Shown here: positions 18,318 to 64,000 of the stretch, piece after piece
Position numbering within the stretch: the first letter of the stretch is position 1
How the letters are laid out: every line of letters begins with the position of its first letter
Notes under the pieces: model-generated
Told to the model about the DNA's origin: nothing
Database searches by the model: none
The model's input: the letters and a program-made list of their open reading frames with translations, nothing else
Assembly (NCBI GenBank): GCA_019096065.1
Contig: JAGUCH010000006.1
Location: forward strand, 1,942,001 to 2,006,000
DNA from: Paracyclopina nana
Taxonomy: Eukaryota > Arthropoda > Copepoda > Cyclopoida > Cyclopettidae
Direction: 5' to 3'
DNA length: 64,000 nt
Position numbers and translations under genes: made by a program

Positions 18318-19445
18318 ATGTGGCAAGATATTGAAAGCGTGCTCCACCATCCTGCTGCTGTCACAGGTCCAACCAGTGAACTAATTGATAGGGTGAACGG
18401 ATTAGTCGATCACAATCAGCTGGCGGACTTCAGTAGTGACCAGCATCACTACTTCACCAATCATCATCATCACAGCTACGAAGCTCCAAGCAGCCACTCG
18501 TACGAGCTTGACCTCAGCATACACTCGACCACCACAGTGAAATGTGAGCCAGACTCGATTAAGGACTCCAAAAGCCTCATCAGCAACGCTGAGCCACATC
18601 CACCCCGATCTCCATACTTGGACTCGTACAATTTCCCCTACAATGACAACAATAACGATCTCATGCATGCTCATCAGGCTGCCAAAATGGCTTCAGACTA
18701 TTACGCCTCCAACGGCAGCAGTGGGGAAGCAGCAAATAGGGGGCCTCATTACTCCTGTTGGAACCAGTTCAACCATCATCATCACCAACCAGAGTACCAA
18801 TACCGGGCTGGTGGGTATCATGAGCTAGCAAAGCATGCTGGGGAGAAAAGCCAGCATCACCCGCTCAGCTACGCACCTAATGGCAGCTATGGACAGCCTC
18901 AGTACCAGAGTTACCAGGGTGGCTACCCACAGGGCCGGTATCCGCCCCAATATGCCCACCAAACCGTGCCAAGCCACCATGGGTTCACTGCCATGACGGC
19001 CCCTTCAAGTCACAGCCATCTTGTCAATTTATTTGGAGCGAGCTCGAATAGTGGTAGTGCAATAGCGGGAGAAAGCCCTTCAATAGATGGCGCCACCAGC
19101 TCCTCTGCTCCTTCAGCTGCTGCTGCTGCTGTTCCGCTGAAAAAGCGAGGACGTCGGCGTTGGGGCAAGAAAAAAGTGACTATCCACACATGTTCATACG
19201 AAGGGTGCTCCAAGACTTACACCAAATCCAGCCACCTGAAGGCCCACCTGCGAACGCACACGGGTGAAAAGCCGTATGTGTGCTCGTGGAAAGGCTGCGG
19301 GTGGAAGTTTGCTCGCTCCGATGAGCTCACCAGGCATTATCGAAAGCACACAGGAGATCGGCCGTTCCAATGCCGATTGTGCGAAAGAGCTTTTTCCAGG
19401 TCTGATCACCTGGCCCTGCATATGAAAAGACACGTTTCAGGGTGA
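18318..19445 (+). CDS. Krüppel-like factor 2 of 3, histidine/tyrosine rich
   Basis: The main exon of a KLF transcription factor, 375 residues from [11 protein letters not shown]. It starts right after a pyrimidine-rich acceptor (TTTTTACATTACAG|ATGTGG), the position used by the other two KLF genes. A short first exon like their MAQL exons is therefore expected upstream, but I could not identify it. The open frame continues back to an ATG at 18249, but that part looks like intron. Three C-terminal C2H2 fingers follow a basic block ([12 protein letters not shown]): [29 protein letters not shown] and [21 protein letters not shown]. The N-terminal two thirds are rich in His, Tyr, Ser and Gly and lack the NVNV and LTPPSSP blocks of the other two KLFs. 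Finger 2 has the usual TRHYRKH, so this is the more divergent paralogue. Confidence 0.9.
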
Positions 19446-38734: not shown

Positions 38735-40278
38735 TCACATGGTCATGTGCCTCTTCATGTGCAGGGACAAATGGTCAGATCTTGAAAAGGCCCTTTCGCA
38801 CAAGCGGCATTGGAATGGCCGGTCTCCAGTGTGTTTTCTCGTATGGCGGGTTAGTTCGTCTGAGCGAGCAAACTTCCATCCACAGCCTTTCCATGTGCAG
38901 ACATATGGCTTTTCACCCGTATGAGTCCTTTGGTGGGCCTTCAAATGGCTCGACTTGGTGTAGGTTTTTGTGCAGCCATCTTGAGGACAATGATGGATAA
39001 TTTGCTTACGCTTGGACCAAGTTCGGCGTTTTCGCGGCTTGGCAATTTTACCTGTTTTGGTTGTCTTTTGCGTCGCTGTCGTTGATTTGCTCAGACTGGT
39101 TAGGATCGGCGGGCTGGGCATGAGAGCAGCTGCAGCGGATGACATCTGATGATACTGGGGATGAGCATGATGTTGATGATACATTCCAACAAATGGGGAT
39201 GAAGGTGGAGTAAGTACCTTTTGTGGAGATCCTTGGTGAGCCTGGTGGGCTCCTGGATATTGATAGTAGGTTTGGTGGTGGTGGTGCAGCATTTGCTGGC
39301 TCTGATGATGTTGCCTTTGTTGGCTGTAGTATGCGGCTGCAGCAATCGATTCTGGACTATGTGGTGGAGTATAATTGACACCTTGGTGATGATATGGTGC
39401 ATGGCACTGATTCTGATAATGATGCTGGTAGTACTGGTGTCCAGCTGCAGCAGCAGCGACGGCAGCACTTGTTGTCGGAACTGAAGTAATGGACGCGTTC
39501 TGCTGTGTTGGCAGCAAATTCACATTCACGTTGACATTCAAGTTCAATTGGTCACTGGTAGCTGTCCCTGAGTAGCTGTATTGTCCGGATGAGCTATTGT
39601 AGTAACTGCTCGGATATTTGCCACTATTGTAGTAGGAGGGATAATGGTCATAGTTAACTTCATGATTTGATTGTTGCTGCTGATAGCTTTGAGGATCAGC
39701 TTCCACACTTTTGGCTCCGGCCTCCCCCACTGGCTTGTAGTAAGAGTCCAAGTTTTGGAGGCTGTAGTCAGCGGGATTGTTGGAGGAGTAATTTGAGGTC
39801 ACTGCATTGCTGAACTCATCCTTGACACTGGAAGCTGATGATGACAGTTGGTGTTGTTGCATTGTTTCTGCGCTTGATGAGCCAGATACAGTTGATGAGT
39901 TGATCGGATCACTGATGGTGCTTGGGCTTGCCAAAGTGGGTAAATGCCACATCTGAAATGAGGGAATTTTTTTCTCATGCTGATTTGACCCCAAACAGAT
40001 CCTCCTGATCCACTGTGCGAAAATGTGGAGTTTCTCCTAGCGCTAGGTCATGGGACTTGACAAGATCTAAACCAGACAATACTTCACCTAATGGTTGCTC
40101 GCGACCGACCCCAATTTCTAATGACATAAAATGTGACCTCAATCATTGAAAGAATTTTATCATTTTTTTAAGCACTGCATTTGGCATAGAAACTGAATCG
40201 GCTGATTGATTCAGCGCTTATTAATATATGAATCACTCTTACCTTATGCACGCTCGGACTGGTTAACAGTTGTGCCAT
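38735..40278 (-). CDS. Krüppel-like factor 3 of 3
   Basis: A predicted 417-residue KLF on the minus strand. Exon 1 (40243-40278) encodes [12 protein letters not shown] and ends at AAG|GTAAGA; exon 2 (38735-39952) starts at TTTCAG|ATGTGG and continues as [11 protein letters not shown]. This repeats the split of KLF gene 1 (MAQLHE then MWYDIE), which supports both models. Shared blocks with KLF gene 1 are [31 protein letters not shown] and [18 protein letters not shown] before the fingers. The three C2H2 fingers are [29 protein letters not shown] and [21 protein letters not shown]. The middle is rich in Ser, Tyr, His, Gln and Ala. Genes 1 and 3 therefore derive from one duplication, later separated by about 30 kb and inverted relative to each other. 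Confidence 0.92.
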
Positions 40279-51382: not shown

Positions 51383-51699
51383 TTTTACTCGCGTTTATTG
51401 ATCCAACAAGAGAAAATGCCGGAAAGTTGTCCAGGCGAACTGTGACTACCTTTCGTCAGGCAGTCGATGCTTTCCATACGTGAATTGTGCGCGACAATCC
51501 ATCATTTTTAATGGAACCAGTTTTTTTCCGACTCTGTCATCTTGAATTTTACAGCTCCGCACTTTTTCAACTCGATCATCAATATTTTATAGGGCATGCT
51601 TGTCGTGGTCCGCCTGCGCCGTCGCGCGCTCTCGCCCGCTAGGATGACGTGGAAGCTGCTGCTGCTACTCAGTGCCGACGCCATTACGTTTTTTCAGTG
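51383..51699. other. shared 5' flank of WDR27-like gene and retroelement
   Basis: About 320 bases separate the WDR27-like ATG (minus) from the presumed LTR start (plus), so the two units are head to head. Most of it is a likely WDR27 promoter, with a G+C-rich patch at 51605-51650. No palindrome of the GCATTGC family is present. Confidence 0.4.
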
Positions 51700-52077
51700 C
51701 TGTAAAAGAATTCCTGAAGAATAGAACTGTTTTTTCATCGTATATCTTTGCCGTTTTGTGTTTATTTCATGTATTTATTGTATGTCTAGATTATAGAGCA
51801 TTGCTCATAGTCTATCAGGAGTTCTACCCCACTGGAAGCAGCACTCTTTGGATTGTATTGTTGTCATTGTCTGGATTGGATGGATTGCACTTTTGGCTAC
51901 ACTTGTCATTGTCATCCTGGATTCCAGTTTGTCATCTTGCATTGCAAGCTCCTCTTTTAGTACCTGAAAGAGAGATTCATTCATCTTGTTTGATAGTTAG
52001 CATTGCTAAGACTCGTTTATTTCGATCTTGTCATTATTACTCGGTCAGGCCTTTATTGAAGGTCACTGGACACGACA
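51700..52077 (+). repeat. candidate 5' LTR
   Basis: The segment begins TGTAAAAG and ends ACACGACA, so it has TG...CA ends. It finishes three bases before the primer-binding site. Length is about 378 bases. The right end is well placed by the primer-binding site; the left end is a guess because no second LTR is in the window. It contains three palindromes, with cores at 51798, 51938 and 52000. Confidence 0.55.
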
Positions 52078-52080
52078 GTT

Positions 52081-52098
52081 TGGCGCCCAACGTGGGGC
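52081..52098 (+). promoter_or_regulatory. tRNA primer-binding site
   Basis: TGGCGCCCAACGTGGGGC follows the LTR end. It starts with TGG, complementary to a tRNA CCA end, as expected for minus-strand DNA priming. The tRNA species was not assigned. Confidence 0.8.
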
Positions 52099-52143
52099 CT
52101 CTTATTCATCCCTGAGCGAACCTAGAATTAACAAGAGTCTCAT

Positions 52144-53982
52144 ATGCCTAAAAAGAGAGGATCCGGAGGAAAGAAACGAGGAAACCCCACCAGGCAAAGC
52201 TTGAGAAATCAAGGCCAAAATCCGTATGGTTACAAGGGTAAAATCAATCTTGAGATTTCTCCTTATCATCAGGCCTTGTTCGATCTCCGTGAGCAACGTA
52301 GCAATAATTCTGGGAATTCTTCTCGGGCTTCTCTGGTGGAGGAGGTACGTGAACAAGTTAGCGATCCGGAGCTAGCTGATCACATTGTGGAACTCATTGA
52401 ATCACCGGATTTGAATCGGTCATCACCCAGAGCTGAGGACCCTCAAGCCACCACAATGCCCGTCCAACACTCTCCCATGAATTATGACCCGAATGCCTCT
52501 ATGCTGCCTCCGACGCCCATGCCACCACCCCATAATCCTCAAGAAGGGCCAAGCAGGCGGTCAGGCAATCAAGCTCTGTCAGGTCCACCGACCACTACTG
52601 CTGCATTGCAGCCTCCCATGCCGCCCTTTCTTTCCAACCCTTCAACGTCTGGAGCTACTGGAAACGCAGGAGAATTTGTCACTCCTACCTCCACGGAGCT
52701 CACACAACAAACCATGATTCCAGCCTCCAATTTGTCTGGAGATACTCCTGGGAAACCAGGCGGCTCAAGAGCCACAGCTGGCATGAGGCCGCCACCATAC
52801 CAACAATCCTCGCAGGATGATGCTTCCTCGCAAGTGTCTTTGCCTAGCCAGGCTGCTGGATCAGGTATTCAGCCCCGGGGAAAAGGAGTGCCAAAAGGAG
52901 GAAAAAAGAAGGCTACGGGTTCTGGTCAAAGAAGCGAAGCAGAGTATGTTCCAAGGGGAACTTCCTCCCGACCGAGAGCAGCGAAGAAGAGTGCCAAACA
53001 ACTTCAGGAGATGAAGAATGCTGAGGTGGAAGCCTTTAATCATACTGAATCATTGCAGGCACTTTTTCAGATGACCAACCCGTTCGTCAGAAGGCAGAGA
53101 GAAGTTTTTCTCAACCAACAACGCCCAGTCAGCAAGGCTGACGCGCAAGAAGTCCTTCAACACCTTCGCTTTTACATCAAAGAATACGAGCGACTTTATG
53201 CAGCTTATGGAGCTGCCACCAACGCTGCTCAGATCGAGCCATCTGTTTCTTTGAAGGAGTCGTATAAGAAGAACTATAACGCCTGTCAAGCATTGCTGCA
53301 GGCTGCTCAGGAGATCATGAGAGCATATGATGATGGAGCTGTGCGCAGAGCCAGTGCCAATTTAGCCAATCAACCTGTTTTAACAGATGATGCTAGGAGT
53401 GGTTCTATGGCGGGGAGCATTGCTCCCAACTCTATGCAGGGCCCCTCAGTGCCTGTCTCCAATCAAGAGATTTCGTCGCATCAGCCAATGGTCAACCGGG
53501 TGGCCAGAACCACTGATGGTTCTCATCATGTGCTTATGGCTGATGGCACGTATCATTTTCTGCCCGCCGCGCAGTCAGCTGTTCAAGGAAATGCAGAGTG
53601 GCTGGCTCAGCAAGAAAGAGTGGCCGTGGAAGTCATCACTGGCGTGGCTGAGGCAACTACAGGCGCTCCGGCGCGCACTCAGGACTCGCAAGTTCCGAAC
53701 CGAGATTTGGCGCTCGGCCAGCCGACAACAAACAACATGGGAGCTCGTCAACAAGGTACGTCAAATATGGCTGAGTTTTCCAGCGCTGCTATTGATTATG
53801 GGGCGCGCGTCTCTGCCTTGAGGGAAGCTCACAGTATCATGCTGCAAGATATAGAAATTGATGCTCCTGCCGATGTTGTGGCCAACTATGAAACTTATTC
53901 CTCCGTGTTGGGCCATGCTCAAGAAGCTCGGCAAAACTTTGAAAGATTAGGTGGGGGATTCTATGTTGTTCGTGGACGCTGA
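52144..53982 (+). CDS. retroelement ORF1, basic proline-rich Gag-like protein
   Basis: An open frame of 612 codons starting 46 bases after the primer-binding site. The N-terminus is strongly basic (MPKKRGSGGKKRGNPTRQ). A long Pro/Gln/Ser/Thr-rich low-complexity region follows, then a second basic patch (GKGVPKGGKKKATGSGQR). A helical, charged region at about residues 280-420 (QLQEMKNAEVEAF, LQHLRFYIKEYERLYAAYG) could be a multimerisation or capsid-like segment. No zinc knuckle is present here; those lie in the downstream frame. The stop overlaps the next open frame by 32 bases in the +1 frame. The product is probably a structural or nucleic-acid-binding protein made from the genomic RNA. Confidence 0.7.
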   Translation: MPKKRGSGGKKRGNPTRQSLRNQGQNPYGYKGKINLEISPYHQALFDLREQRSNNSGNSSRASLVEEVREQVSDPELADHIVELIESPDLNRSSPRAEDPQATTMPVQHSPMNYDPNASMLPPTPMPPPHNPQEGPSRRSGNQALSGPPTTTAALQPPMPPFLSNPSTSGATGNAGEFVTPTSTELTQQTMIPASNLSGDTPGKPGGSRATAGMRPPPYQQSSQDDASSQVSLPSQAAGSGIQPRGKGVPKGGKKKATGSGQRSEAEYVPRGTSSRPRAAKKSAKQLQEMKNAEVEAFNHTESLQALFQMTNPFVRRQREVFLNQQRPVSKADAQEVLQHLRFYIKEYERLYAAYGAATNAAQIEPSVSLKESYKKNYNACQALLQAAQEIMRAYDDGAVRRASANLANQPVLTDDARSGSMAGSIAPNSMQGPSVPVSNQEISSHQPMVNRVARTTDGSHHVLMADGTYHFLPAAQSAVQGNAEWLAQQERVAVEVITGVAEATTGAPARTQDSQVPNRDLALGQPTTNNMGARQQGTSNMAEFSSAAIDYGARVSALREAHSIMLQDIEIDAPADVVANYETYSSVLGHAQEARQNFERLGGGFYVVRGR

Positions 53983-54835
53983 AAAATTGATAACAAGAAT
54001 AAGAAACCTTGCACGCAACCTCCCCAACACTGCCAGGCCTACTAGGCCTCCCAAGGACTTCTTCAATCCTTTTGACTATGGAGAAAATGCTGCGGAAACT
54101 AACAACAGAGGCCAAGTCGTGGGAAATGTCTATGTGCCGCATCGCGGACAAGCTGCTCCTGCTAATGAGGAGATACGACTTCCACCTCTCAACAGACCTC
54201 CACCATCAATACGACCATCGGTGCCTCAACCAAGCATGATCAATTCGGCCCCAACGGAGATTGGGAGGAGTAATGCTCCTAACCTGCCCACAGCCAATAG
54301 GCCCCCTGAAAGCATTGCTTACAGCCATGCAGGAGCCGTCTCGTCTGGATTTTTTGGTGCACATGAAGGACCGCCTCCATTTTTGCATCCTCAACCAGGG
54401 CCTCCTCTTGTTTACAGCAATGCTGGGCAGTATACCCCCTACACCTTGGCCAGTCATGCTCAACCACAGGTGATGCCTGGCATAAGTGTGTCAGCCAGTG
54501 GAACTCGACACCATCTGCCTGTAACAGGATCCTATGTGAGCAATGCTCACCAGCCCTTGAACCCAGGGTTCGTACATCAGGTTGGTCCACCTCAACAGGT
54601 CTTACAGGTCAGTCGACCACCCATTTATCCACCTCCACCAGTTCTGAATCCTCATGGCTACCCCACTGGAGGAGAAAACTTTGGTCAAGCTCAACCAGGT
54701 TTTCAAGCACATCCGTCTTCTTCTGGATATGGAGCTCAGCCTCAGGTAACTACGTGGGGTTCAAGCAGGTTCACCGGACCACATGTGCCGTCCTTTGGAC
54801 AAAACTACGCTGGAGTACAGAATCTGCAGCCTTGA
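53951..54835 (+). CDS. retroelement ORF2, proline-rich frame ended by TGA
   Basis: This frame lies in the +1 register relative to ORF1 and overlaps its end by 32 bases; a TAG lies directly before it. The first ATG is at about 53963. The frame runs about 290 codons of Pro/Gly/His/Gln-rich sequence (PPPSIRPSVPQPS, FLHPQPGPPLVYSNAGQ) without recognisable domains. It ends at a single TGA followed by CAA. Downstream the same frame stays open into the gag-pol frame, so ORF2 and pol are separated only by that one stop. It is probably a linker or N-terminal part of the polyprotein, reached by recoding or broken by mutation; sequence alone does not decide. Confidence 0.6.
   Translation: MGDSMLFVDAEKLITRIRNLARNLPNTARPTRPPKDFFNPFDYGENAAETNNRGQVVGNVYVPHRGQAAPANEEIRLPPLNRPPPSIRPSVPQPSMINSAPTEIGRSNAPNLPTANRPPESIAYSHAGAVSSGFFGAHEGPPPFLHPQPGPPLVYSNAGQYTPYTLASHAQPQVMPGISVSASGTRHHLPVTGSYVSNAHQPLNPGFVHQVGPPQQVLQVSRPPIYPPPPVLNPHGYPTGGENFGQAQPGFQAHPSSSGYGAQPQVTTWGSSRFTGPHVPSFGQNYAGVQNLQP
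54833..54835 (+). other. single in-frame TGA between ORF2 and pol
   Basis: A TGA followed by C is the only stop between ORF2 and the long pol frame in the same register. UGA-C is a leaky stop context in eukaryotes. It could be programmed readthrough or an inactivating mutation. Confidence 0.6.
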
Positions 54836-57800
54836 CAAGACTTTGGGAGTTATCAAGCGCCCCATTTGCAGCCTGCATTGCAGGGCAACTTTCCTGCAAG
54901 ATACAAGGCCAAGCTTCCACCCGTCAGTATGTATAAGTTCACAGGTCACGACGTCTCAGCCTTCTACCCCTTTCGCGATCAGTTTCGGTCTTTCATACAT
55001 GAGGATCCGACCATGCCATGGCCCGAAAAATATTCGAGACTCCTTGAACTTACGCAGGGCGGACCAGCCGGTGACTTTGTGAGTAGGCAGCCTCAGACTG
55101 AACAGGGCTATCTTTATTGTCTTGAGGCGCTGCAAGCTGATTATGGTTGTCCCAAGCTACAAATGGACTGTCTCATTAACAAGCTGATGACTATGGCTCC
55201 TCTTGATCATGAAAATGCTGCTAGTGTCATGACTGCAAAGCTTGCCGTCGGGGACATCTATCGACATGTGACCAATCATTGGGGCTATCCAGGCATCGCG
55301 GCCTCTATGGAACTCCATGACTCGTACATTTTTAGGTCTCTGCCCATGACAATGTCAACTCGAAATGACATTGATCAATTTATCAATGGCCGCAGTGATG
55401 ATTACAACTCTTACTTGAATGGAACGCTGTTTGAAAAGTGGTGTGACAAGAAATTGCACAGGCTGAGATCTCTTGCAGTCAATCCTGGACAGCAAAGTCG
55501 CCAGCCAAAGCCGCTTAGGACTGGCAACGCTGTCAACCACTACGAGGCCTTTCCACTAGATGAAGAATACCTGCCAACTGTGGTCGAAGCTGAATCAGCT
55601 CCCAACGTGAGTTCACTCTTACAATTTAGTTCCAGGAGCAATGCTCAAGCCACCGAGGAACTTATTATTCCGGATGAAAAAGAAGCGCATTTCACAATAC
55701 TCACTGTGACCAAAGGTGATCAGAAGTATTACACAAAGTGTCCAGAATGCAATTCTGCGGAGCATCGCTTCTACAATTGTCCTAGCATTTTGGCATTGCC
55801 ACCGAGAGGTCAAGCTCTCAAATGCTTCAAGTACAAGGCTTGCCTAAAGTGCATGGCAGGTGCACACAATGCGGCGAAGTGCATTCGAGACTGGAAATGT
55901 GAGAAGTGCCAATCAGAAAATCATCACACTCGTCTGCATGGCGCCTGGGACCACAAAACCGATCAAGGTGAGAAGTCAACTACCATGCCCAAGGCTGACC
56001 CGGAGGAAGCAACCCGCAATGCGGTAGGCAATGCGATGGCTCACATCGCTGAAATGCTTCAGAAGATCTCTGTAAGTCCTTCACAACCAGGAGAGGATGG
56101 ACTGGACCCGATCAAGGAAGGTTTACCCAAGGTGAGCAATAATCACTTTACTTCCGTTTCAGCCAGCATTGCTGGTGAGGACTGCTCTTTCTTGAGCTCT
56201 GAAGATGATATTGACGTCTTCGAACAGAGCAAAGTTAGTGATGCTAAAAGTGTTGACGACACGAAAGCTGAAATTGGGCCTATGGCTGGGAGCATTGCTC
56301 CTTCCATTTCTCCTGCCCCATCATTGTCAAAGAAGATCAACTCTGCGCAACGCACTCATAGGGATCTTCTCAGCTTTTGCGTGGTACCAATCATGGTGGC
56401 AAACCCCAAGAATCCAGATCACTACATAAAGGTAAATGCCTTTTTAGACACCGGCGCCCAACTCTCTTTAGTCTCAGAAAACCTCGCCAAGAAGCTTGAA
56501 TTGCAAGGAGTATCTGACGACCAAATTCTAAAAATGATTGCCACCACGGTCACTGTCACTAGCAATGCCGTTTCGCTGAGAATAAAGCCCGTAAAGGGGG
56601 GACAACATCATGATCTGTCATTACACACCATCACGGATTTGCCTTCCTCAGTCTCAGTGCCTCCACTCGAACGTCTGAAGAAAAAGTTTGAATATCTGAA
56701 AGGTCTCGAGCTGCCAACTTACGCCTCCCCACCGCAACCGGATCTTCTCATTGGAATCGACTACTACAATTTGATCATGCCTGAAAACATCATCCATAAA
56801 AAAGAAGGTGAACCATATGTATATGATTGCGCTCTCGGTAGGGTTATCACTTATTATACACCTGAGCAAGTGCGTGGTGCTTCTCAATTCGGTGTTATGT
56901 TGGGTCATGTGGCATTGCCACAAGAGCAACATGAAGCTCTTATGCCCCCCAAGCCACAATGCAATGTATGTGAAGGAAAAGACATTCCACCTCCTGCTGA
57001 ACTGTTGAAAGCCTTGTGGGAATTTGACAATCCACTTGGGCCACCACCTTTAGCAATGCTAAGCGTCAATGACAAACGGGCCTTGGACATTCTGGTGGAC
57101 TCGATCACTCAACTGGATAGCAGGCAGTATCAGATGAGCCCAATGTGGCGTCACGGCGAGCCTTACTTCATCAACAACCGATTGGCAGTCATGAAAGCCA
57201 CTGCTGGAGTGGAAAGAAGACTCAAGCTCTTTGACATGCCAACCTATGAAAAAGCTACTCAAGAACTCAAAGAGTGGCTCGAACTGGGATTTATTCGGGT
57301 TTTAGATCCAGACGTCGATGATTTGAACGATGGATATTACTTGGATTGGCTTCTGGTTGAGCATAAGGACAAGCCAAGCATGCCAGTGCGCGTTGTTTTT
57401 GACGGGTCAAGAAAACACAACGGTAAGAGTTTGAATGATGCTCTTTTGCCCGGCCCCAAACTGCAACGCAATGTGTTTGAGATCTTAATTGGAGCTAGAG
57501 AAAAACCCGTCATAATCGTAACCGACATTTCCAAAATGTTCCTAAGATTCGCGCTTGATCCAGAATCTAGAAAGTTTCATCGATTTGTGTGGCAAGGAGT
57601 TCACTATGAAGCCAATTCAGTTGTTTTCGGCACGGCCAGTGCTCCTTGTATGGCCAATTTTGCGGTCAAACACCACATTTCACAATTTCAAGATTCGCAT
57701 CCATTGGGCTACAAGATTCTGGATAACAGCCTCTATGTTGACGATGTTTTTGCCTCGGTGGAGGACGAAAAAGAAGGAAGAGAGGCTGTCAAACAAATTT

Positions 57801-60682
57801 TGGACCTTGGTGAAAAAGGAAACATGCCCTTTCGCAAATGGGGGAGCAATGCTCTCTCAGTATTGGAAGACATCGATGACGATTTGAAACTTCCAGGGTT
57901 CATGGTCTCCTCTGATTCCACCGAAGTCACAAAAGCTCTTGGAATGTATGTAGATTGCATTGGGGATCAAATTGTGTACAAACCTCCCTCCTATGACGCA
58001 TTGCGTCACGCACCATTAACTTTGCGAATCATGGCACAATTTGTGCCACGTCTTTTTGACCCATTAGGCTTGCTCAATCCATTCGTATTAAGGGGAAAGT
58101 TGCTCATCCAACGGGTCATGGCATTACAAACCGTTTTCAACATTGACTGGGATACGGTGTTTGATATGATTGATTCTGAGGAAGTTGACAAAATCAGCAA
58201 AGAATGGTACCAATATGTTGAGGAGGTGAGTCATGTTGAACTATTCCGTATCCCTCGCGCAATGCGCCACAGACCTGCAAAAAGCATTGCTTTGCACATC
58301 TTCTGCGATTCAAGTGACTACGCTAAGGGTGCCGCCGCTTACATATGTGCAACTTATGAAAATGACACTTATGATTGCACGCTACTCGCTTCACGCATGA
58401 AAATTGCATCCTTGTCAGAAACGCGTTCAATCACGGAAATGGAGCTCGAAAGTTGTGTCATTGGCGCCGAACTCTGCGAAGATGTACTGAGAAGCCTGGA
58501 GCATGTTGACGAAGTACATTTGTGGACAGATTCGCAATGTGCGTTGACATGGATTTCAAAACCCTCATGTAACTGGAGAAAATGGGTGGCTAGAAGAGTC
58601 ACTTTGATAGTGGAGAAGACCATCAACCATTTCTGGCATCACGTTCCAGGTAGGATCAATTCTGCTGATTTAGTCTCTAGGGGCTGCAGCGTTGCTGCAC
58701 TAGCAGACTCTGATTTATGGATTCATGGTCCACCCTTCCTAAGAGGACCCAAAGACAAATACCCTTCTTGGACACCAAAAATCACTGATGACGAAAGAGC
58801 CGCATTGGAAAAGTATGCAAAAGAAGGTCACAACCCAAGAAAAGCTAAGAAAGTCATGAAAAAAGTTGTCATGCTCGGACTATTTGACAGGCTGGGAGGG
58901 TATTATGTCCCTAAACATCTTAGACCCACGGCAGCTGTGCGAGAGCTTTGGGATTATGCCAGGAGCAATGCTTGTCATGTCAAATTGTCCTCGCTAAATA
59001 GCTGGTCGAGAGCTGTGAGGGCTCTCTGTGTGTGTAGTCGATTTTTTCATTTCATCGCTTATGGCCGAGAAGCAATGCTTCAAGGACCATTTACTGAGCA
59101 AGAACTTACTCGTGCAGAGGCTAGCATTGCTACCTGGCTGCAACAGAAGGAGTACAGGAATGAACTAGACTACTTCATGGAAAAGGGTCATTGGCCAAGA
59201 GGAAGCAGATTAGCATTGCTAGATCCAGTCCTCAGTCCCTTAGGCGAGTTGAGAACAAAAGGAAGACTAGACAGCTCACCAGTGCAGTGGATAGGCAGGA
59301 GACAATTGATAGTACCAGGAGAGGGACGAAGACTTGTACTAGAAGATGCACACAAGAAGCTTGGTCATGGTCTAGGACGACTGAGGTACCTAAATGAAGT
59401 ACAGTTGAAGTACAGCGTGCCTGGCGGTAAGAGAATTATGACCGAAATTTTGAATCATTGTGCAATGTGCGCCAGGATCAAGCTGGTCTCCCTCCCACCC
59501 CATATGGGCTTGCTACCGCCACATGCCGTACCTTTGACAGAATTTCTGCCATTTCGTTATACGAGCTTTGACATGTGTGGACCCTTCAGAACCCAATTCA
59601 ATCGATCTGAGTATCTGATGTACGTAGTCGTCTTCATTTGTCTCCACTCGAAAGCGATTCACTGTGAAGAGTTGTATGACATGAGCACTGATTGTCTTAT
59701 GCGTGCGCTGGAAATGTTTGTGTCAAGAAGAGGCTGCCCGCACATGTTGAGAAGTGATAATGGCAGCAACTTTATAGGCTGTAGAGAATCTATCAGGCTC
59801 AATCCTCGCTATGTTGAATTTTTGGACAAATTGCGGGTTGTTGATTGGGAGAAATTGAGACAATTTGGGGGACAAATAGGCATAGTGGAATGGACACTCT
59901 CTCCACCCTACTCTCCTAACTTCAATGGACTCGCTGAAGCAAGCATAGCTATCTTTAAGAAAGCTCTCTATCGACACTTTTCAAGCAGTGTGACCAATAT
60001 TGAGGACTTTCGCTATCTTATCATCAAAGCCGAGGGATTTGCTAATGGACGACCAATTGGCGAGATTGACGGCCACTTTCTTACTCCTAATCATTTTCTG
60101 ACCAGAGGACCTCCTGGAGATGTGGTACCAGTGATCGACCCAGATCAGCTGACCACATTGGAAGCAAGATTCAGACTTATTGAGACTGCATTGCAGTCTT
60201 TGTGGGATTATTGGTCAAAGGAGCTAGTTGAAAGACTTAGAAAAATGCCGATCTGGACGCACCACAGAGATCGCTTAAAAGAAGGAGATGTGGTAGCAGT
60301 CTTAGAGAAACCTCACTTTCATCGAAGATATTGTTGGCCACTCGGCATAATACAGAGAGCATTTCGAGATCAGGATGGCGAATGCAGAAGAGCTGTGGTG
60401 AGAATGATCCCTCCAGGAGAATTTGAGCCTGTCTATTATGAGAAGTCCACGCAGTTCTTGATTCCATTGGAAGTCTTCAAGGACTCTGATGAATTCATCC
60501 TCTATAAAAGACCAGGTGATCAAGGAGAAACTCCTAACTTGGACCATCTTCGCAACGATAAAGACTGGGAAAGCCTTGAAAGGTACGTCAACTTTAGTCA
60601 AAATCGTCCAACTGGAAACGAATCTCATCGAGATTTTCCAATACGCTCCAGTCCCACTGTGACTCTAGGCGATGTTCTTTAA
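54836..60682 (+). CDS. BEL/Pao Gag-Pol polyprotein frame (zinc knuckles, protease, RT, RNase H, integrase)
   Basis: An uninterrupted frame of over 1,900 codons. Positions here count from 54866. Residues 27-200 form a Gag segment (YKFTGHDVSAFYPFRDQF, YGCPKLQMDCLINKL) like DUF1759. Cys/His knuckles lie at about 291-358 (CPECNSAEHRFYNC, CLKCMAGAHNAAKC, CEKCQSENHHTRLH). The aspartic protease motif DTGAQ is at about 528. The RT region has RVVFDGSRKHNG and a YVDD catalytic box at about 957. RNase H has FCDSSDYAKGAAAY at about 1148 and LWTDSQCAL at about 1219. Integrase has an HHCC zinc site (HKKLGH, CAMC; about 1495-1535) and D, D, E residues at about 1568, 1630 and 1690. A DUF5641-like tail (RDRLKEGDVVAVLEKPHFHRRYCWPLG) ends the protein. 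All catalytic signatures are present, suggesting a fairly recent copy. Confidence 0.9.
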   Translation, partial: QDFGSYQAPHLQPALQGNFPARYKAKLPPVSMYKFTGHDVSAFYPFRDQFRSFIHEDPTMPWPEKYSRLLELTQGGPAGDFVSRQPQTEQGYLYCLEALQADYGCPKLQMDCLINKLMTMAPLDHENAASVMTAKLAVGDIYRHVTNHWGYPGIAASMELHDSYIFRSLPMTMSTRNDIDQFINGRSDDYNSYLNGTLFEKWCDKKLHRLRSLAVNPGQQSRQPKPLRTGNAVNHYEAFPLDEEYLPTVVEAESAPNVSSLLQFSSRSNAQATEELIIPDEKEAHFTILTVTKGDQKYYTKCPECNSAEHRFYNCPSILALPPRGQALKCFKYKACLKCMAGAHNAAKCIRDWKCEKCQSENHHTRLHGAWDHKTDQGEKSTTMPKADPEEATRNAVGNAMAHIAEMLQKISVSPSQPGEDGLDPIKEGLPKVSNNHFTSVSASIAGEDCSFLSSEDDIDVFEQSKVSDAKSVDDTKAEIGPMAGSIAPSISPAPSLSKKINSAQRTHRDLLSFCVVPIMVANPKNPDHYIKVNAFLDTGAQLSLVSENLAKKLELQGVSDDQILKMIATTVTVTSNAVSLRIKPVKGGQHHDLSLHTITDLPSSVSVPPLERLKKKFEYLKGLELPTYASPPQPDLLIGIDYYNLIMPENIIHKKEGEPYVYDCALGRVITYYTPEQVRGASQFGVMLGHVALPQEQHEALMPPKPQCNVCEGKDIPPPAELLKALWEFDNPLGPPPLAMLSVNDKRALDILVDSITQLDSRQYQMSPMWRHGEPYFINNRLAVMKATAGVERRLKLFDMPTYEKATQELKEWLELGFIRVLDPDVDDLNDGYYLDWLLVEHKDKPSMPVRVVFDGSRKHNGKSLNDALLPGPKLQRNVFEILIGAREKPVIIVTDISKMFLRFALDPESRKFHRFVWQGVHYEANSVVFGTASAPCMANFAVKHHISQFQDSHPLGYKILDNSLYVDDVFASVEDEKEGREAVKQILDLGEKGNMPFRKWGSNALSVLEDIDDDLKLPGFMVSSDSTEVTKALGMYVDCIGDQIVYKPPSYDALRHAPLTLRIMAQFVPRLFDPLGLLNPFVLRGKLLIQRVMALQTVFNIDWDTVFDMIDSEEVDKISKEWYQYVEEVSHVELFRIPRAMRHRPAKSIALHIFCDSSDYAKGAAAYICATYENDTYDCTLLASRMKIASLSETRSITEMELESCVIGAELCEDVLRSLEHVDEVHLWTDSQCALTWISKPSCNWRKWVARRVTLIVEKTINHFWHHVPGRINSADLVSRGCSVAALADSDLWIHGPPFLRGPKDKYPSWTPKITDDERAALEKYAKEGHNPRKAKKVMKKVVMLGLFDRLGGYYVPKHLRPTAAVRELWDYARSNACHVKLSSLNSWSRAVRALCVCSRFFHFIAYGREAMLQGPFTEQELTRAEASIATWLQQKEYRNELDYFMEKGHWPRGSRLALLDPVLSPLGELRTKGRLDSSPVQWIGRRQLIVPGEGRRLVLEDAHKKLGHGLGRLRYLNEVQLKYSVPGGKRIMTEILNHCAMCARIKLVSLPPHMGLLPPHAVPLTEFLPFRYTSFDMCGPFRTQFNRSEYLMYVVVFICLHSKAIHCEELYDMSTDCLMRALEMFVSRRGCPHMLRSDNGSNFIGCRESIRLNPRYVEFLDKLRVVDWEKLRQFGGQIGIVEWTLSPPYSPNFNGLAEASIAIFKKALYRHFSSSVTNIEDFRYLIIKAEGFANGRPIGEIDGHFLTPNHFLTRGPPGDVVPVIDPDQLTTLEARFRLIETALQSLWDYWSKELVERLRKMPIWTHHRDRLKEGDVVAVLEKPHFHRRYCWPLGIIQRAFRDQDGECRRAVVRMIPPGEFEPVYYEKSTQFLIPLEVFKDSDEFILYKRPGDQGETPNLDHLRNDKDWESLERYVNFSQNRPTGNESHRDFPIRSSPTVTLGDVL
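60183..60199 (+). repeat. 17-base perfect palindrome of the GCATTGC family
   Basis: AGACTGCATTGCAGTCT: five arm pairs, inside the C-terminal part of the pol frame. Confidence 0.9.
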
Positions 60683-60747
60683 CTAATTAAGCATTGCTTC
60701 ACTGCGCATTGCGCCTCCATTCTAGTCATTTATATTTAATTGAAATT

Positions 60748-60753
60748 GGGGGG
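60748..60753 (+). promoter_or_regulatory. G-run, possible polypurine tract
   Basis: A run of six G preceded by GAAATT lies 65 bases after the pol stop, where a plus-strand primer would be expected. What follows does not match the 5' LTR, so the assignment is weak. Confidence 0.25.
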
Positions 60754-60990
60754 ACATTCCGTTCACTCTCCAGTTTTTATTGCTCGCATTGCGCGTAATC
60801 TTGTACCAGTGGTCGCAGCTCGCATTGCGAGAAAGGTTGCGAGAATTTCGGTGCGGAAAATTACCCTTTGTTCCGTTCACGCAACCTAGCCAAGTTATCC
60901 ACGGCTTAGCTGGTTTTTTGTTGTTGTTTTGTCCGCTCAACTTTCCGTTTCCGCCCTCTTTATGGTGTGAGAAAAACAAATTATTCTTCG

Positions 60991-60997
60991 TATAAAA
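60991..60997 (+). promoter_or_regulatory. TATA-box candidate for the last open frame
   Basis: TATAAAA lies 35 bases before the ATG at 61026, after a spacer with four palindromes. It suggests that the downstream frame has its own transcript, or a very short leader. Confidence 0.4.
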
Positions 60998-61025
60998 AGT
61001 GAATAAAAAGTGCACACTCGAAAAA

Positions 61026-64000
61026 ATGTCGACCTCTGAGGTCCCTATGGAGGACTTGCCCGTCCTCCAGCCCAACCCGGCGCCACCTTCAAATGAAGAG
61101 ACGAAGGAGGCCAGCGATGCAATCGGCTTAGCAGTCGAACAACGTGAGGTCATCCAGGAGTTTGACCACCTTGGGGTCTCCACGGGCAGCATTGCTGCCC
61201 AAACACCAGGTAATGACGAGTCTAGCATTGCTACTCTTGGTACCAAGGAGAACATGAACACGGAAGAAATGGAAGTCGATCAAGCCTCTCCACGTTATGC
61301 TCCCTCTGAACTCAGCGATCGAATCGAATCGGGCAGCATCTCCACAAGTATTTTCAATCTCACCGATGGAGAAGAATCCCTGACGATCAACGCCGATCCT
61401 GAAAAGGATATGGATCTTCTTGACGAGGATGAGGAATTGGGTGAGTTGCCAAGCTCCAGAAAGAAGGTCGATGAAGCAGCTGACACAAGAAAAAAGGGCG
61501 AGTCAAGAGGAAGCAAAAGTGCCCCGAGCTCCAGAAGCTCTTCCAGTCGTAGGTCGAGTTCGTCGCGGGAGTCTTCATCTCGGTCCTCATCGTCCCGAAA
61601 TTATCGAAGCTCGTCAGCCTCTGCTTCATCCGGAACATCCCGGGTGAAGATTAAAAGGCCTGATTTCACCCCAGTCACTTTCAAGACACCATTGTCCAGG
61701 GATTCACGTTCAACTCATGAACGACGTGAGCGAGATCGCCGGGGAGTAGAGAAGAAGAAGGATGAGTCTTCCTCAGGCAGGTCCTCAGTCTTTGCCAGGC
61801 TTGGGACCAAGATTGAAGACAAACAATTCGATGACAACGTGTTCGTGTTCAGGGACCTGAGTAGCAATGTGCTACGAGATGAGTTTGGTATCGCAAGACC
61901 TAATAACCTTTCATTGCTGTATTTAGGACCGGATCTTCCTTCTCGATTCGAGGAGCGTCGAGCTATGCTCGCGGATCAGATCCGAATTATTGGCATTGCC
62001 AATCAAGCTCATCGGCTTGTCTTCGAGGATGAGGCCTTATCTTTGCCAGGAGATGTGCTGCTTTGCAGCTATTGCGATCCTGGAGTAAGCTTCCTGGGCC
62101 ACTCCCTTTCTTATGGACAGAGGGACGCTGATGATTCCAGGGAGGAAGCGCATCGCGCAATGGAGCCAGCAGCGGCCGCACGTGCTGACAACACCAGGAT
62201 TGCTGGCCTCTGTGGAGGACGACCTCCGCTCTACGTGATGGGAGTGTGTCACCCGAAGCTCGCAGCTCACTATGACAAGTACGAGCTTGACTGCGTGTTT
62301 GCCAGCCCACCTGTGCATCCTCTTCGGCGCGGGCCCTTGGAGGGAGAAATGCTCCTGCGAGCTGTGAAGATTTGGGATGTACGCAAGGCCTTTGCTTCAG
62401 TGATGGTGAAAGGACTTTTTTGCGAGTCGCCTCCCAATGAGGACGAATGTCTTCGACAGGTGTTGTCGTTGGGCAGCCTCAATCAAGATGCGTCAGTTCC
62501 AGAGTGGCTGTCTCGCTTCTGGCATCACCTTGCACGTGTGCCCGCTTTGGCCTCATTGGCCGACCCCTTCGGCAACCCAGATCTTTGGGCCGCTGCGCTG
62601 AGGACTGCCTCATTTGTGGCACCCGCATTGCGAGCACCACCACCTAACTTGGACTTGTGTGGACAAGAGAGCTCTCCTCTGTGCCCACGTGTGGAAGCAT
62701 TGCTTCAAAACTCCTCCTGCAATGCAGAATGTCCGGCTGACAACTGTGCCTTGCACAAGGTGCCCGAGGGCCCGCATGACGCCCAAGTTCGTGGCGAAAT
62801 GGGTGAGCAATGCTACACCTATTTTTCCCTCAAAGAAGCCATTGAAGCCATCAAGCTTGGAGACGGCCCGTTTGATTGTCGACCTCGGGGAGGTTTTCGC
62901 AATGTTCTAGTTCTTGAGAACGACGAACAATGGCCCGCAATGGAGGAACTTCTAGAGAGCAAGTACGCCTTCTTCAGCAGCATTGCTGCTTGGAGCGTCA
63001 TGACGAGTCAAGTGGTGTCATGGACCATTGGAGCACTGCAGAGGATGAAGATGACGACCACTGGCAAACCTAATGAGGGATGTTTTACCTTGATGGGTGC
63101 TGGCTCCTTCAATGGCACTCTTTTGCTCATCCAGTGCAACTATGGTGGCATCGGCCAGACTTTTGCAGGAGCAAAAGTTCCGCAGAAGATCGTGCAGCTC
63201 CTGGAGTCACAAGAAGTGCGGGTCGTCGGCTTCAACCTGGGAGAAGAAAAGCGCTACTCTGACCTTGGCATTGAGATCAGAGGGAAGTGCGATGCCAACT
63301 TGGTGGCTCTGGCGCTGTTTCCGCAGGCTGGTGAGGCTCCCGCAACCATGAAGAGCAACCTCACTTACGTTGCCACTCGTCTTGGAGCTCTGGCTGTTCC
63401 AATCCTGGTCACGGCCTCAAGAAAAAACAAGCTTCAGTTGCCACCTCCCAGGAAGACTTTTTGTTATGACCGAGACAATGACGATTTCAGTGTCTCCTAC
63501 AAGAAGTGGACCTCGCAAATGCAGATGTACGTGTGGATGCAGCACGCCATCTCCGGAGCCTCCATTCTTGCTCTGGTAGTGAGAGGCCTGCTCAGGCAGG
63601 GGTTTGGCCTCCAAACGGATGTGGTGCGCATTGCGCACATGTATCTGGATAGGATACGCAACAACCGCAGCACGGGCAAATTGGTCAAGACCGACGAGGA
63701 GATGAGGCCCTTTAACAAAGAAGAGCCATTTACCGTGACCTCGCATTGCGAGGATGGCGTGCCCGCTCTCTGGATGTGGCTGTTGAAGGAGCAACAGGCT
63801 TCATGCCTCAACAGTGCCCTGGCCACGCGCACCTTTTTGCGCAAGGGAGCTCGACGCTATGCCTTCGACCTCCATCTTGTTTCAAAGCAGTTGGCCTCGG
63901 ACTTTATGGCCATTGTGAGAAAGCCGCCAGGGAAGCTCACTTGGAGAGACATTATCGACATCGTCTTTTCAAAGGGGCGCATTGCGCCCCACTTTTGCAA
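61026..64000 (+). CDS. SR-rich protein with degenerate exonuclease-like region, cut by window end
   Basis: An open frame of 991 codons with no stop before the window ends. The start (MSTSEVPMEDLPVLQPNPAPP) lies just after a TATA-box candidate. The N-terminal 150 residues are acidic (DPEKDMDLLDEDEELGEL), followed by a Ser/Arg-rich tract (SSRSSSSRRSSSSRESSSRS) and a basic segment. The remaining 700 or so residues are globular in composition. Residues at about 720-780 (VPQKIVQLLESQEVRVVGFN, then LGIEIRGKCDANLVALALF) resemble the middle of DEDD-type 3'-5' exonucleases (MUT-7/WRN-like), but the first acidic motif is not visible, so activity is doubtful. No membrane segment or signal peptide argues against an envelope protein. 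It shares the GCATTGC palindromes with the retroelement upstream and may be part of the same element. Its family is unknown to me. Confidence 0.7.
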   Translation, partial: MSTSEVPMEDLPVLQPNPAPPSNEETKEASDAIGLAVEQREVIQEFDHLGVSTGSIAAQTPGNDESSIATLGTKENMNTEEMEVDQASPRYAPSELSDRIESGSISTSIFNLTDGEESLTINADPEKDMDLLDEDEELGELPSSRKKVDEAADTRKKGESRGSKSAPSSRSSSSRRSSSSRESSSRSSSSRNYRSSSASASSGTSRVKIKRPDFTPVTFKTPLSRDSRSTHERRERDRRGVEKKKDESSSGRSSVFARLGTKIEDKQFDDNVFVFRDLSSNVLRDEFGIARPNNLSLLYLGPDLPSRFEERRAMLADQIRIIGIANQAHRLVFEDEALSLPGDVLLCSYCDPGVSFLGHSLSYGQRDADDSREEAHRAMEPAAAARADNTRIAGLCGGRPPLYVMGVCHPKLAAHYDKYELDCVFASPPVHPLRRGPLEGEMLLRAVKIWDVRKAFASVMVKGLFCESPPNEDECLRQVLSLGSLNQDASVPEWLSRFWHHLARVPALASLADPFGNPDLWAAALRTASFVAPALRAPPPNLDLCGQESSPLCPRVEALLQNSSCNAECPADNCALHKVPEGPHDAQVRGEMGEQCYTYFSLKEAIEAIKLGDGPFDCRPRGGFRNVLVLENDEQWPAMEELLESKYAFFSSIAAWSVMTSQVVSWTIGALQRMKMTTTGKPNEGCFTLMGAGSFNGTLLLIQCNYGGIGQTFAGAKVPQKIVQLLESQEVRVVGFNLGEEKRYSDLGIEIRGKCDANLVALALFPQAGEAPATMKSNLTYVATRLGALAVPILVTASRKNKLQLPPPRKTFCYDRDNDDFSVSYKKWTSQMQMYVWMQHAISGASILALVVRGLLRQGFGLQTDVVRIAHMYLDRIRNNRSTGKLVKTDEEMRPFNKEEPFTVTSHCEDGVPALWMWLLKEQQASCLNSALATRTFLRKGARRYAFDLHLVSKQLASDFMAIVRKPPGKLTWRDIIDIVFSKGRIAPHFC
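61184..61200 (+). repeat. 17-base perfect palindrome of the GCATTGC family
   Basis: GGGCAGCATTGCTGCCC: five arm pairs around the core, inside the SR-rich open frame. Confidence 0.9.
63974..63990 (+). repeat. 17-base perfect palindrome of the GCATTGC family
   Basis: GGGGCGCATTGCGCCCC: five arm pairs, ten bases from the window end, so the family probably continues outside. Confidence 0.9.

What the first reader, a model, noticed from the sequence alone, without database searches (positions are those of the whole stretch)
51796..63990. A dense family of micro-palindromes with a fixed core and covarying arms
Seen directly: 43 exact GCATTGC or GCAATGC cores in about 12.3 kb, where roughly 1.5 are expected. 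In 36 of 43 at least two flanking base pairs are complementary (about 3 expected), and 11 have four or five. The arms differ in sequence (GGGA/TCCC, GTGC/GCAC, TGTG/CACA, ATTG/CAAT, CCTC/GAGG), so the copies are not simple duplicates; pairing itself is conserved. In RNA each would be a small stem with an AUU or AAU triloop. Inference: these are hairpins or dyads under selection or actively produced, for example packaging or replication hairpins, sites for a dimeric DNA-binding protein, or products of hairpin-templated reverse transcription. Short dispersed palindromes are known in other settings (cyanobacterial HIP1, fungal mitochondrial hairpins, Rickettsia palindromic elements), but I know of no such family in an LTR element.
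Basis: seen in the sequence. Interest (0 to 1): 0.93.

Follow-up and report, generated by a model that had tools for sequence, protein, structure and literature searches.

The report
Retrotransposon RNA studded with coded hairpins
A mobile genetic element (a relative of retroviruses) and its cousins in the same animal genome carry dozens of tiny RNA hairpins whose tip sequence is shared within a lineage but differs between lineages, which looks like a molecular label, perhaps one by which each element recognises and packs its own RNA.

Summary
In detail: 43 GCATTGC/GCAATGC cores in 51796-63990 (about 3 expected), 36 with at least two further paired bases. They span a BEL/Pao LTR retrotransposon (51601-64911, beyond the window edge). 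Relatives in the same 92-Mb genome show what they are. The 11 close relatives examined carry the same hairpins at alignable positions, with arms that change in complementary pairs. More distant BEL lineages carry dense hairpins with another loop: CAG/CAT/CAA, CAA plus GAAA, GAAA alone, CAC, GAC/GTC, GCGA/TCGC. Loop type follows the reverse-transcriptase tree. Host DNA (8 of 9 stretches) and three Gypsy-type loci lack this; synonymous-codon shuffling does not produce it. In several lineages loops are almost purely sense-strand (GAAA 37:0, CAG 99:13), pointing to RNA; in the window's own lineage strand bias is moderate. Best explanation: dispersed, lineage-specific recognition hairpins in genomic RNA, most likely packaging/assembly signals read by an element-encoded protein (Gag, or the zinc-knuckle ORF3 protein). 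Eight literature searches listed no such system in an LTR retrotransposon.

The parts
51601..52077 (+). 5' LTR (477 bp, TGTCGTG...CACGACA), 99.4% identical to the 3' LTR at 64435-64911 (beyond the window); holds 3 paired hairpins
52081..52099 (+). primer-binding-site-like stretch after the LTR (TGGCGCCCAACGTGGGGCC; resemblance to a tRNA-Lys primer site is recalled)
   Evidence: read
52144..53982 (+). ORF upstream of pol (gag-like by position; no Pfam match)
53951..54835 (+). second upstream ORF, other frame, ending in TGA 54833-54835 in frame with pol
54836..60682 (+). pol frame: zinc knuckles, aspartic protease, RT, Peptidase_A17, integrase, DUF5641 (BEL/Pao)
60683..61025 (+). non-coding spacer between pol and ORF3; 4 cores, 3 paired (8.7 paired sites per kb)
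61026..64000 (+). ORF3 (continues to 64394, 1122 aa): Ser/Arg-rich N-terminal part, CCHC zinc-knuckle motif near the C-terminus; candidate RNA-binding reader
51796..51806 (+). hairpin, loop ATT, core + 2 pairs
51936..51948 (+). hairpin, loop ATT, core + 3 pairs
51997..52009 (+). hairpin, loop ATT, core + 3 pairs
52600..52612 (+). hairpin, loop ATT, core + 3 pairs
53289..53297 (+). core ATT, 1 flanking pair (weak)
53413..53427 (+). hairpin, loop ATT, core + 4 pairs
54310..54320 (+). hairpin, loop ATT, core + 2 pairs
54415..54425 (+). hairpin, loop AAT, core + 2 pairs
54536..54550 (+). hairpin, loop AAT, core + 4 pairs
54872..54884 (+). hairpin, loop ATT, core + 3 pairs
55636..55646 (+). hairpin, loop AAT, core + 2 pairs
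55791..55801 (+). hairpin, loop ATT, core + 2 pairs
56014..56024 (+). hairpin, loop AAT, core + 2 pairs
56028..56034 (+). core AAT, no flanking pair
56163..56175 (+). hairpin, loop ATT, core + 3 pairs
56289..56301 (+). hairpin, loop ATT, core + 3 pairs
56562..56568 (+). core AAT, no flanking pair
56908..56922 (+). hairpin, loop ATT, core + 4 pairs
57050..57062 (+). hairpin, loop AAT, core + 3 pairs
57844..57854 (+). hairpin, loop AAT, core + 2 pairs
57994..58008 (+). hairpin, loop ATT, core + 4 pairs
58257..58267 (+). hairpin, loop AAT, core + 2 pairs
58281..58293 (+). hairpin, loop ATT, core + 3 pairs
58964..58972 (+). core AAT, 1 flanking pair (weak)
59069..59081 (+). hairpin, loop AAT, core + 3 pairs
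59122..59132 (+). hairpin, loop ATT, core + 2 pairs; site shared in the clade with arms changed in pairs
   Evidence: column 4444
59211..59221 (+). hairpin, loop ATT, core + 2 pairs
60183..60199 (+). hairpin, loop ATT, core + 5 pairs; core present in all 12 aligned clade-A loci, with two or more flanking pairs in 11
   Evidence: column 5511
60689..60699 (+). hairpin, loop ATT, core + 2 pairs
60704..60714 (+). hairpin, loop ATT, core + 2 pairs
60785..60793 (+). core ATT, 1 flanking pair (weak)
60819..60831 (+). hairpin, loop ATT, core + 3 pairs
61184..61200 (+). hairpin, loop ATT, core + 5 pairs
61223..61233 (+). hairpin, loop ATT, core + 2 pairs
61989..62003 (+). hairpin, loop ATT, core + 4 pairs
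62624..62632 (+). core ATT, 1 flanking pair (weak)
62694..62706 (+). hairpin, loop ATT, core + 3 pairs
62717..62727 (+). hairpin, loop AAT, core + 2 pairs
62806..62814 (+). core AAT, 1 flanking pair (weak)
62976..62990 (+). hairpin, loop ATT, core + 4 pairs
63624..63638 (+). hairpin, loop ATT, core + 4 pairs
63739..63753 (+). hairpin, loop ATT, core + 4 pairs
63974..63990 (+). hairpin, loop ATT, core + 5 pairs

Best explanation
The sites are short RNA hairpins (4-bp stem, triloop A-U-U or A-A-U closed by C-G) scattered along the element's sense RNA and kept by selection on the RNA. BEL/Pao lineages in this genome each have their own loop set (AUU/AAU; the same plus CAU/AUG; CAG/CAU/CAA; CAA plus GAAA; GAAA; CAC; GAC/GUC; GCGA/UCGC), while the outer stem may be any sequence as long as it pairs. 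SHOWN: the dispersed families, dependence on pairing, compensatory change, clade-specific loops, sense-strand specificity in several lineages, absence from 8 of 9 host stretches and from the three Gypsy-type loci sampled. INFERRED: that the loop is read by an element-encoded RNA-binding protein (Gag, or the zinc-knuckle ORF3 protein in this clade), that many weak sites act together as dispersed packaging/assembly signals marking the genomic RNA as the element's own, and that the loop co-evolves with its reader so that lineages sharing a germ line stay separate.
For: 34 of 36 BEL loci have a commonest hairpin loop above every one of 60 shuffles; 1 of 9 host stretches does, and 0 of 3 Gypsy-type loci. 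Loop types sit on the RT tree with the fewest possible changes, 10 for 11 labels; shuffled labels need 22.7 on average. L024-L026 carry both CAA (24, reverse complement 1) and GAAA (16:0), next to the GAAA clade L027-L029. Synonymous-codon shuffles: 15 of 16 locus/loop tests reach the observed count in 0 of 300; window pol 16 paired against mean 0.22, maximum 2. Column-positions (three outer arm positions) with two or more different Watson-Crick pairs: clade A 17 in register against 3 and 3 when slid by 1 and 2 (9 loci, 45 shared columns); clade B 14 against 2 and 4 (8 loci, 38 shared columns). Sense loop against reverse complement: CAG 99:13, CAT 40:2, CAA 33:4 (8 B loci), GAAA 37:0 (5 loci), CAC 15:1, window element ATT 36:13. 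Fourth stem pair G-U 33 against A-C 10 in the GAAA, CAA, CAC, C and GCGA sets; outer baseline 53:73; Fisher P 9e-5. Paired sites are denser in the LTR (6.3/kb) and pol-ORF3 spacer (8.7/kb) than in coding DNA (1.1-3.5/kb), on three sites each. Predicted closing-pair probability 0.62 against 0.41 with shuffled flanks and 0.30 in host hairpins (n = 11). ORF3 has a zinc-knuckle motif near its C-terminus.
Against: No binding or function is shown. In the window's own clade loops are only moderately sense-biased (ATT:AAT 100:49 in 5 loci) and in A3, C and L043 nearly symmetric (24:21, 22:12, 9:7), which a protein reading one strand does not need. In clades A and B the third and fourth pairs show no G-U excess (13 against 16 A-C), and in the other sets the third pair shows little (19 against 16). 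The gag-side zinc-knuckle block is 84-86% identical between a CAA and a GAAA locus, close to RT (80-93%), so it is not an obvious reader of the changed loop. L044 and L046 do not pass the loop test, one host stretch does, and a satellite stretch does too, narrowly (L047, GAGC 5 against a shuffle maximum of 4). L041 passes the codon shuffle weakly (5 of 300); the loops tested had been picked from the same loci. Spacing along the element is random, and the 66-nt leader and the 40 nt after ORF3 hold no site. Sense folding is better than antisense in mean in 8 of 8 sets but with P < 0.05 in only 3.
Confidence: 0.55

Rival explanations
1. RNA-RNA kissing network: loops that are reverse complements of each other (AUU with AAU, CAU with AUG, GAC with GUC, GCGA with UCGC, CAG with CUG) pair within or between genomic RNAs and condense or dimerise the genome.
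For: Complementary loop pairs both occur often in clades A, A3 and C and in L043, L042 and L032. Ty1 RNA dimerisation by kissing loops is published (PMC5454406, title and start of abstract in search listings).
Against: Partners are missing or rare in most of B (CAG 99:13, CAT 40:2) and in the CAA (24:1), CAC (15:1) and GAAA (37:0) lineages; three-base kissing contacts are weak (inference).
Confidence: 0.12
2. Host RNA-binding protein sites: the hairpins are docked by host loop-reading proteins for stability, translation, export or localisation.
For: Loops are the conserved part and stems vary, as for host stem-loop readers (recalled: Roquin, Smaug). Sites sit also in LTR and spacer.
Against: At least seven loop types coexist in one genome and follow the element tree; a single host factor would not be expected to need a different loop in each sister clade. 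No loop enrichment in 8 of 9 host stretches or 3 of 3 Gypsy-type loci.
Confidence: 0.15
3. dsDNA dyads: binding sites of a dimeric DNA-binding protein on the integrated or cDNA copy.
For: Near strand symmetry of loops in A3, C and L043; no G-U excess in clades A and B.
Against: Arms are not conserved in sequence but only in pairing; 37:0 and 99:13 strand bias in sister lineages; G-U excess at pair 4 pooled over five sets; GAAA and GCGA are GNRA-type RNA tetraloops (recalled).
Confidence: 0.07
4. Mutational product: hairpin-templated reverse transcription, mobile mini-palindromes or satellite-like spread.
For: Short dispersed palindromes of that sort exist elsewhere (recalled).
Against: In 11 of 13 gap-free columns filled and empty sites align without indel (28 columns displayed); arms differ; loops are lineage-specific; frame 2 is rarely used in coding DNA. 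A real satellite cluster in the same genome looks quite different.
Confidence: 0.03

Closest known systems
Packaging-signal-mediated assembly of RNA viruses (MS2, STNV, parechovirus, enterovirus, HBV pregenome)
   Same: Many dispersed stem-loops with a short shared motif in the loop and variable sequence around it (PMC6281560 and PMC7793301, passages read). The enterovirus paper describes 29 such sites with purine trinucleotide loop motifs.
   Different: Here in LTR retrotransposons; about 40 sites in 13 kb; motif statistically visible from sequence alone; loop identity differs between sister lineages in one genome; no coat-protein affinity shown.
Retroviral/LTR-element packaging and dimerisation signals (psi, Ty1 kissing hairpins)
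   Same: RNA stem-loops that mark genomic RNA for Gag (PMC5086612, passages read; PMC5454406, listing only).
   Different: Those described lie at the 5' end of the RNA; here sites run through LTR, gag-like ORF, pol, spacer and ORF3, and none lies in the 66-nt leader.
Roquin/Smaug-type host stem-loop elements (recalled)
   Same: Short stem, small loop read by a protein, stem sequence largely free.
   Different: Single or few sites per host mRNA; one loop class per reader; not a lineage-specific family inside a mobile element.
Rickettsia palindromic elements, HIP1, fungal mitochondrial hairpins
   Same: Short dispersed palindromes.
   Different: Those are DNA repeats or inserted units; here sites arise by substitution where it can be judged, belong to element lineages and differ by loop.

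Membership tests
BEL/Pao (Belpaoviridae-type) LTR retrotransposon | Pol with RT, Peptidase_A17, integrase | tested here: met
   Pfam hits Peptidase_A17 1.6e-31, RVT_1, DUF1758, DUF1759, DUF5641 above cut-off; rve below its cut-off (30.2 against 32.6 bits)
BEL/Pao (Belpaoviridae-type) LTR retrotransposon | TG...CA LTRs, short target duplication, PBS next to the 5' LTR | tested here: met
   477-bp LTRs 99.4% identical; 4-bp TGCT duplication; PBS-like stretch read (tRNA identity recalled)
Dispersed packaging signals (PS-mediated assembly) | Multiple stem-loops dispersed over the genome with a shared loop motif and variable stems | tested here: met
Dispersed packaging signals (PS-mediated assembly) | Acts in sense RNA | tested here: inconclusive
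   Sense bias strong in B, CAA, GAAA and CAC lineages (99:13, 24:1, 37:0, 15:1); moderate in the window element (36:13); absent or unclear in A3 AAT/ATT, C, L043
Dispersed packaging signals (PS-mediated assembly) | Cognate coat/Gag protein binds the loop | not testable with these tools
   needs binding assays
Dispersed packaging signals (PS-mediated assembly) | Sites promote particle assembly | not testable with these tools
   needs experiment
Operator sites of a dimeric DNA-binding protein | Half-site sequence conserved, strand-symmetric | tested here: not met
   Arms vary but pair; strand bias in sister lineages; near symmetry in A3, C and L043 is the exception
Mobile palindromic elements / inserted mini-hairpins | Presence-absence as insertions with indels | tested here: not met
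   13 of 28 displayed columns are gap-free and 11 of these hold both filled and empty sites; the other 15 have gaps nearby and do not decide
Known Rfam RNA families | Match above gathering score | tested here: not met
   0 matches in 51500-64000

The most novel reading that the evidence does not exclude
A self/non-self packaging code: each BEL/Pao lineage writes its own hairpin loop dozens of times through its genomic RNA, including its genes, and an element-encoded protein reads it, so that many related elements sharing one germ line pack only their own RNA; codes change stepwise through dual-loop intermediates (CAA to CAA+GAAA to GAAA).
Probability: 0.42. Interest if true: 0.93.

Novelty: new variant of a known kind. 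Interest (0 to 1): 0.87.

Why it matters
How LTR retrotransposons pick their own RNA out of a cell full of relatives and host mRNA is poorly understood, and dispersed packaging signals in RNA viruses are hard to establish because they are short and degenerate. It would also show a strong RNA-level constraint laid over retrotransposon coding sequence.

Tried and rejected
dsDNA-dyad reading: at first favoured by near-equal counts of both words in unoriented loci and by palindromic cores in other clades; given up when loci were oriented sense and sister clades proved one-sided. One search aligned loci of mixed orientation and was redone.

L024's TCGGCCGA is a tandem repeat, not a hairpin family. 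A dense GCAWTGC cluster at C1:179-181 kb, sought as a possible non-autonomous copy, is a 20-bp satellite. Viral contigs: no relative. Rfam: nothing. ORF3: none of the 8,000 candidates scored was a homologue (residues 250-991), no Pfam or NCBIfam match, best solved-structure E-value 0.38; its AlphaFold model has mean pLDDT 30 and was not used. Host not identified: best named pol hit 34% (Sycon ciliatum), a host WD40 exon gave only two unnamed hits, no COX1 match in the assembly. Zinc knuckles as the diverged reader: not supported. Even spacing: not found. Literature: eight answered searches listed no report of such a hairpin code in an LTR retrotransposon; only the top rows were listed, only open-licence papers are held, and 'BEL Pao' or 'Bel-Pao' counted 0 in every listed paper.

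Full report
What was checked. The window holds 47 GCATTGC/GCAATGC words, 43 of them in 51796-63990 and 4 in the rest. 36 of 43 have two or more complementary flanking pairs and 11 have four or five. Genome-wide the word occurs once per 5.4 kb, and a paired A-T flank is hardly commoner than an A-A flank (AGCAWTGCT 2,032, AGCAWTGCA 1,870). So the density and the pairing are special to this stretch.

Where it lies. The stretch is a BEL/Pao LTR retrotransposon. LTRs of 477 bp at 51601-52077 and 64435-64911 are 99.4% identical; flanks show a 4-bp TGCT duplication. Pol carries RT, Peptidase_A17 and DUF5641 above Pfam's cut-offs and an integrase match just below its cut-off. A further ORF (61026-64394, 1122 aa) follows pol; it has a Ser/Arg-rich part, its part 62322-63998 is 64-67% identical in three relatives, and it has a CCHC zinc-knuckle motif near the C-terminus. 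The whole element has 48 cores, 41 of them with two or more paired flanks.

What the hairpins look like. Beyond the GC/GC of the core, pair 3 is Watson-Crick in 46 of 48 sites, pair 4 in 41, pair 5 in 26, pair 6 in 21, then 10-16. The unit is therefore a 4-bp stem (sometimes 5 or 6) with a triloop. Sites occur in coding frames 0 and 1 and rarely 2, in LTRs and in the pol-ORF3 spacer; paired-site density is 6.3 per kb in LTRs and 8.7 per kb in the spacer (three sites each) against 1.1-3.5 per kb in coding DNA, and none in the 66-nt leader or the 40 nt after ORF3. Spacing is random (CV 0.91, P 0.38). Shuffling synonymous codons keeps the protein but removes the hairpins: pol 16 paired against mean 0.22, maximum 2 of 300 shuffles; ORF3 (window part) 9 against 0.13; second ORF 3 against 0.13; gag-like ORF 2 against 0.04.

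Relatives. Pol has 37 further matches in the genome, two of them pieces of one place, and there are at least 150 Peptidase_A17 places. I examined 36 BEL loci: the best-matching 30 (the first, L011, is the window element) and six chosen by me; 31 of the 36 RT proteins differ. At least one further clade-A-like place (C1, near 9.80 Mb) was not fetched. All 11 other clade-A loci examined (L012-L021, L039) are rich in the same cores, 11 to 23 per locus. In an alignment of clade A many sites share columns and others are lineage-specific. Of 28 columns that I displayed, 13 have no gap in any of ten rows and 11 of these hold both filled and empty sites. At shared columns the arms change in complementary pairs; one reads gctaGCATTGCtagc, aacaGCATTGCtgt and aataGCATTGCtatt in three loci. 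Counted over the three outer arm positions, column-positions with two or more different Watson-Crick pairs number 17 in clade A (9 loci, 45 shared columns) and 14 in clade B (8 loci, 38 shared columns); sliding one side by 1 or 2 gives 3 and 3, and 2 and 4. In L019-L021 the loop itself has changed at shared sites (AAT or ATT to CAT) while the stem stays.

The loop differs by lineage. Scoring all hairpins with stems of at least 4 bp and loops of 3-6 nt, 34 of 36 BEL loci have a commonest loop above every one of 60 shuffles; the misses are L044 (35 of 60 reach) and L046 (4 of 60). Of 9 host stretches, 1 exceeds its shuffles (TCA, 6 copies with unrelated closing pairs), and so, narrowly, does a satellite stretch (L047: 5 against a maximum of 4). 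Three Gypsy-type loci (3.3 kb each) show none. The loops are: A ATT/AAT; A3 these plus CAT/ATG; B CAG/CAT/CAA; L024-L026 CAA and GAAA; L027-L029 GAAA; L037 CAC; C GAC/GTC; L043 GCGA/TCGC; L042 CAG/CTG; L041 weak AAA. Synonymous-codon shuffles confirm 15 of 16 locus/loop tests at 0 of 300; L041 has 5 of 300. The loops tested there had been picked from the same loci; the maximum statistic does not have that weakness. On the RT tree 11 loop labels need 10 changes, the minimum (shuffled mean 22.7); the CAC/CAA/GAAA clade is nested inside CAG lineages. I set the labels after seeing the loops, and near-identical copies cluster by themselves, so the tree result shows that loops are inherited rather than how often they arose.

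RNA or DNA. Oriented to the coding strand, sense loop against reverse complement is CAG 99:13, CAT 40:2, CAA 33:4 in B (8 loci); CAA 24:1 (3 loci); GAAA 37:0 (5 loci); CAC 15:1 (1 locus); window element ATT:AAT 36:13, P 0.0014; clade A 100:49 (5 loci); A3 24:21 and CAT:ATG 23:11 (3 loci); C 22:12 (3 loci); L043 9:7. At the fourth pair G-U outnumbers A-C 33 to 10 in the GAAA, CAA, CAC, C and GCGA sets taken together, against 53:73 at outer positions (Fisher P 9e-5); at the third pair of the same sets it is 19 to 16, and clades A and B show no excess at pairs 3 and 4 (13:16). Local folding predicts closing-pair probability 0.62 in the window element, 0.41 with flanks shuffled, 0.30 for 11 host hairpins; sense exceeds antisense in mean in 8 of 8 sets, with P below 0.05 in 3. 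I conclude sense RNA hairpins, firmly for B, CAA, GAAA and CAC and by kinship for the window's clade, where direct strand evidence is moderate.

How it most likely works. Many sites, a shared loop, free outer stems, coding regions included, and a loop that differs between closely related elements: this is what dispersed recognition sites for a cognate RNA-binding protein would look like. Dispersed packaging signals of RNA viruses are described in similar terms (PMC6281560 and PMC7793301, passages read). Inference: Gag or the ORF3 zinc-knuckle protein binds the loop, many weak contacts sum to selective packaging or assembly, and loop and reader co-evolve. The gag-side zinc knuckles are 84-86% identical between a CAA and a GAAA locus, close to RT (80-93%), so if they read the loop, few residues suffice; other parts of Gag, or ORF3, remain open. 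Kissing between complementary loops could contribute in clades with both loops but cannot explain clades without the partner.

Novelty. Eight answered searches of open-licence papers listed no such system in an LTR retrotransposon; subscription papers and preprints are not covered. I rate it a new variant of a known kind (dispersed RNA recognition signals) with an unusual lineage-specific code.

Noticed in passing
window 53951-53982 and 54833-54835: In this copy the gag-side frame changes (overlap of two ORFs in different frames) and an in-frame TGA separates the second ORF from pol, while many relatives show one open frame of about 2,900-3,100 aa. Described only.
   Followed up: partly
window 61026-64000 (to 64394): ORF3, a conserved 1122-aa protein after pol with Ser/Arg-rich and zinc-knuckle parts and no homologue in the libraries searched.
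   Followed up: partly
window 9225-9551 and 38735-39061: 86% complementary inverted pair; both lie in ORFs with C2H2 zinc fingers, a third such ORF is at 18249-19445.
   Followed up: no
L043: A distant BEL element with GCGA and TCGC tetraloop hairpins in nearly equal numbers and often longer stems than the triloop lineages.
   Followed up: partly
L047 (C1:179.4-180.6 kb) and C1:2449406-2454618: Two tandem arrays holding the core word by chance of their unit: a 20-bp array and a run with mostly 243-bp spacing (positions listed).
   Followed up: partly
L024:5900-6480: Repeat with the word GTCGGCCGAA, not among the top words of L025 and L026.
   Followed up: no
L044: TCCGGA (10 copies, 0.8 expected) is over-represented although no hairpin loop is; may be another kind of signal or chance.
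   Followed up: no
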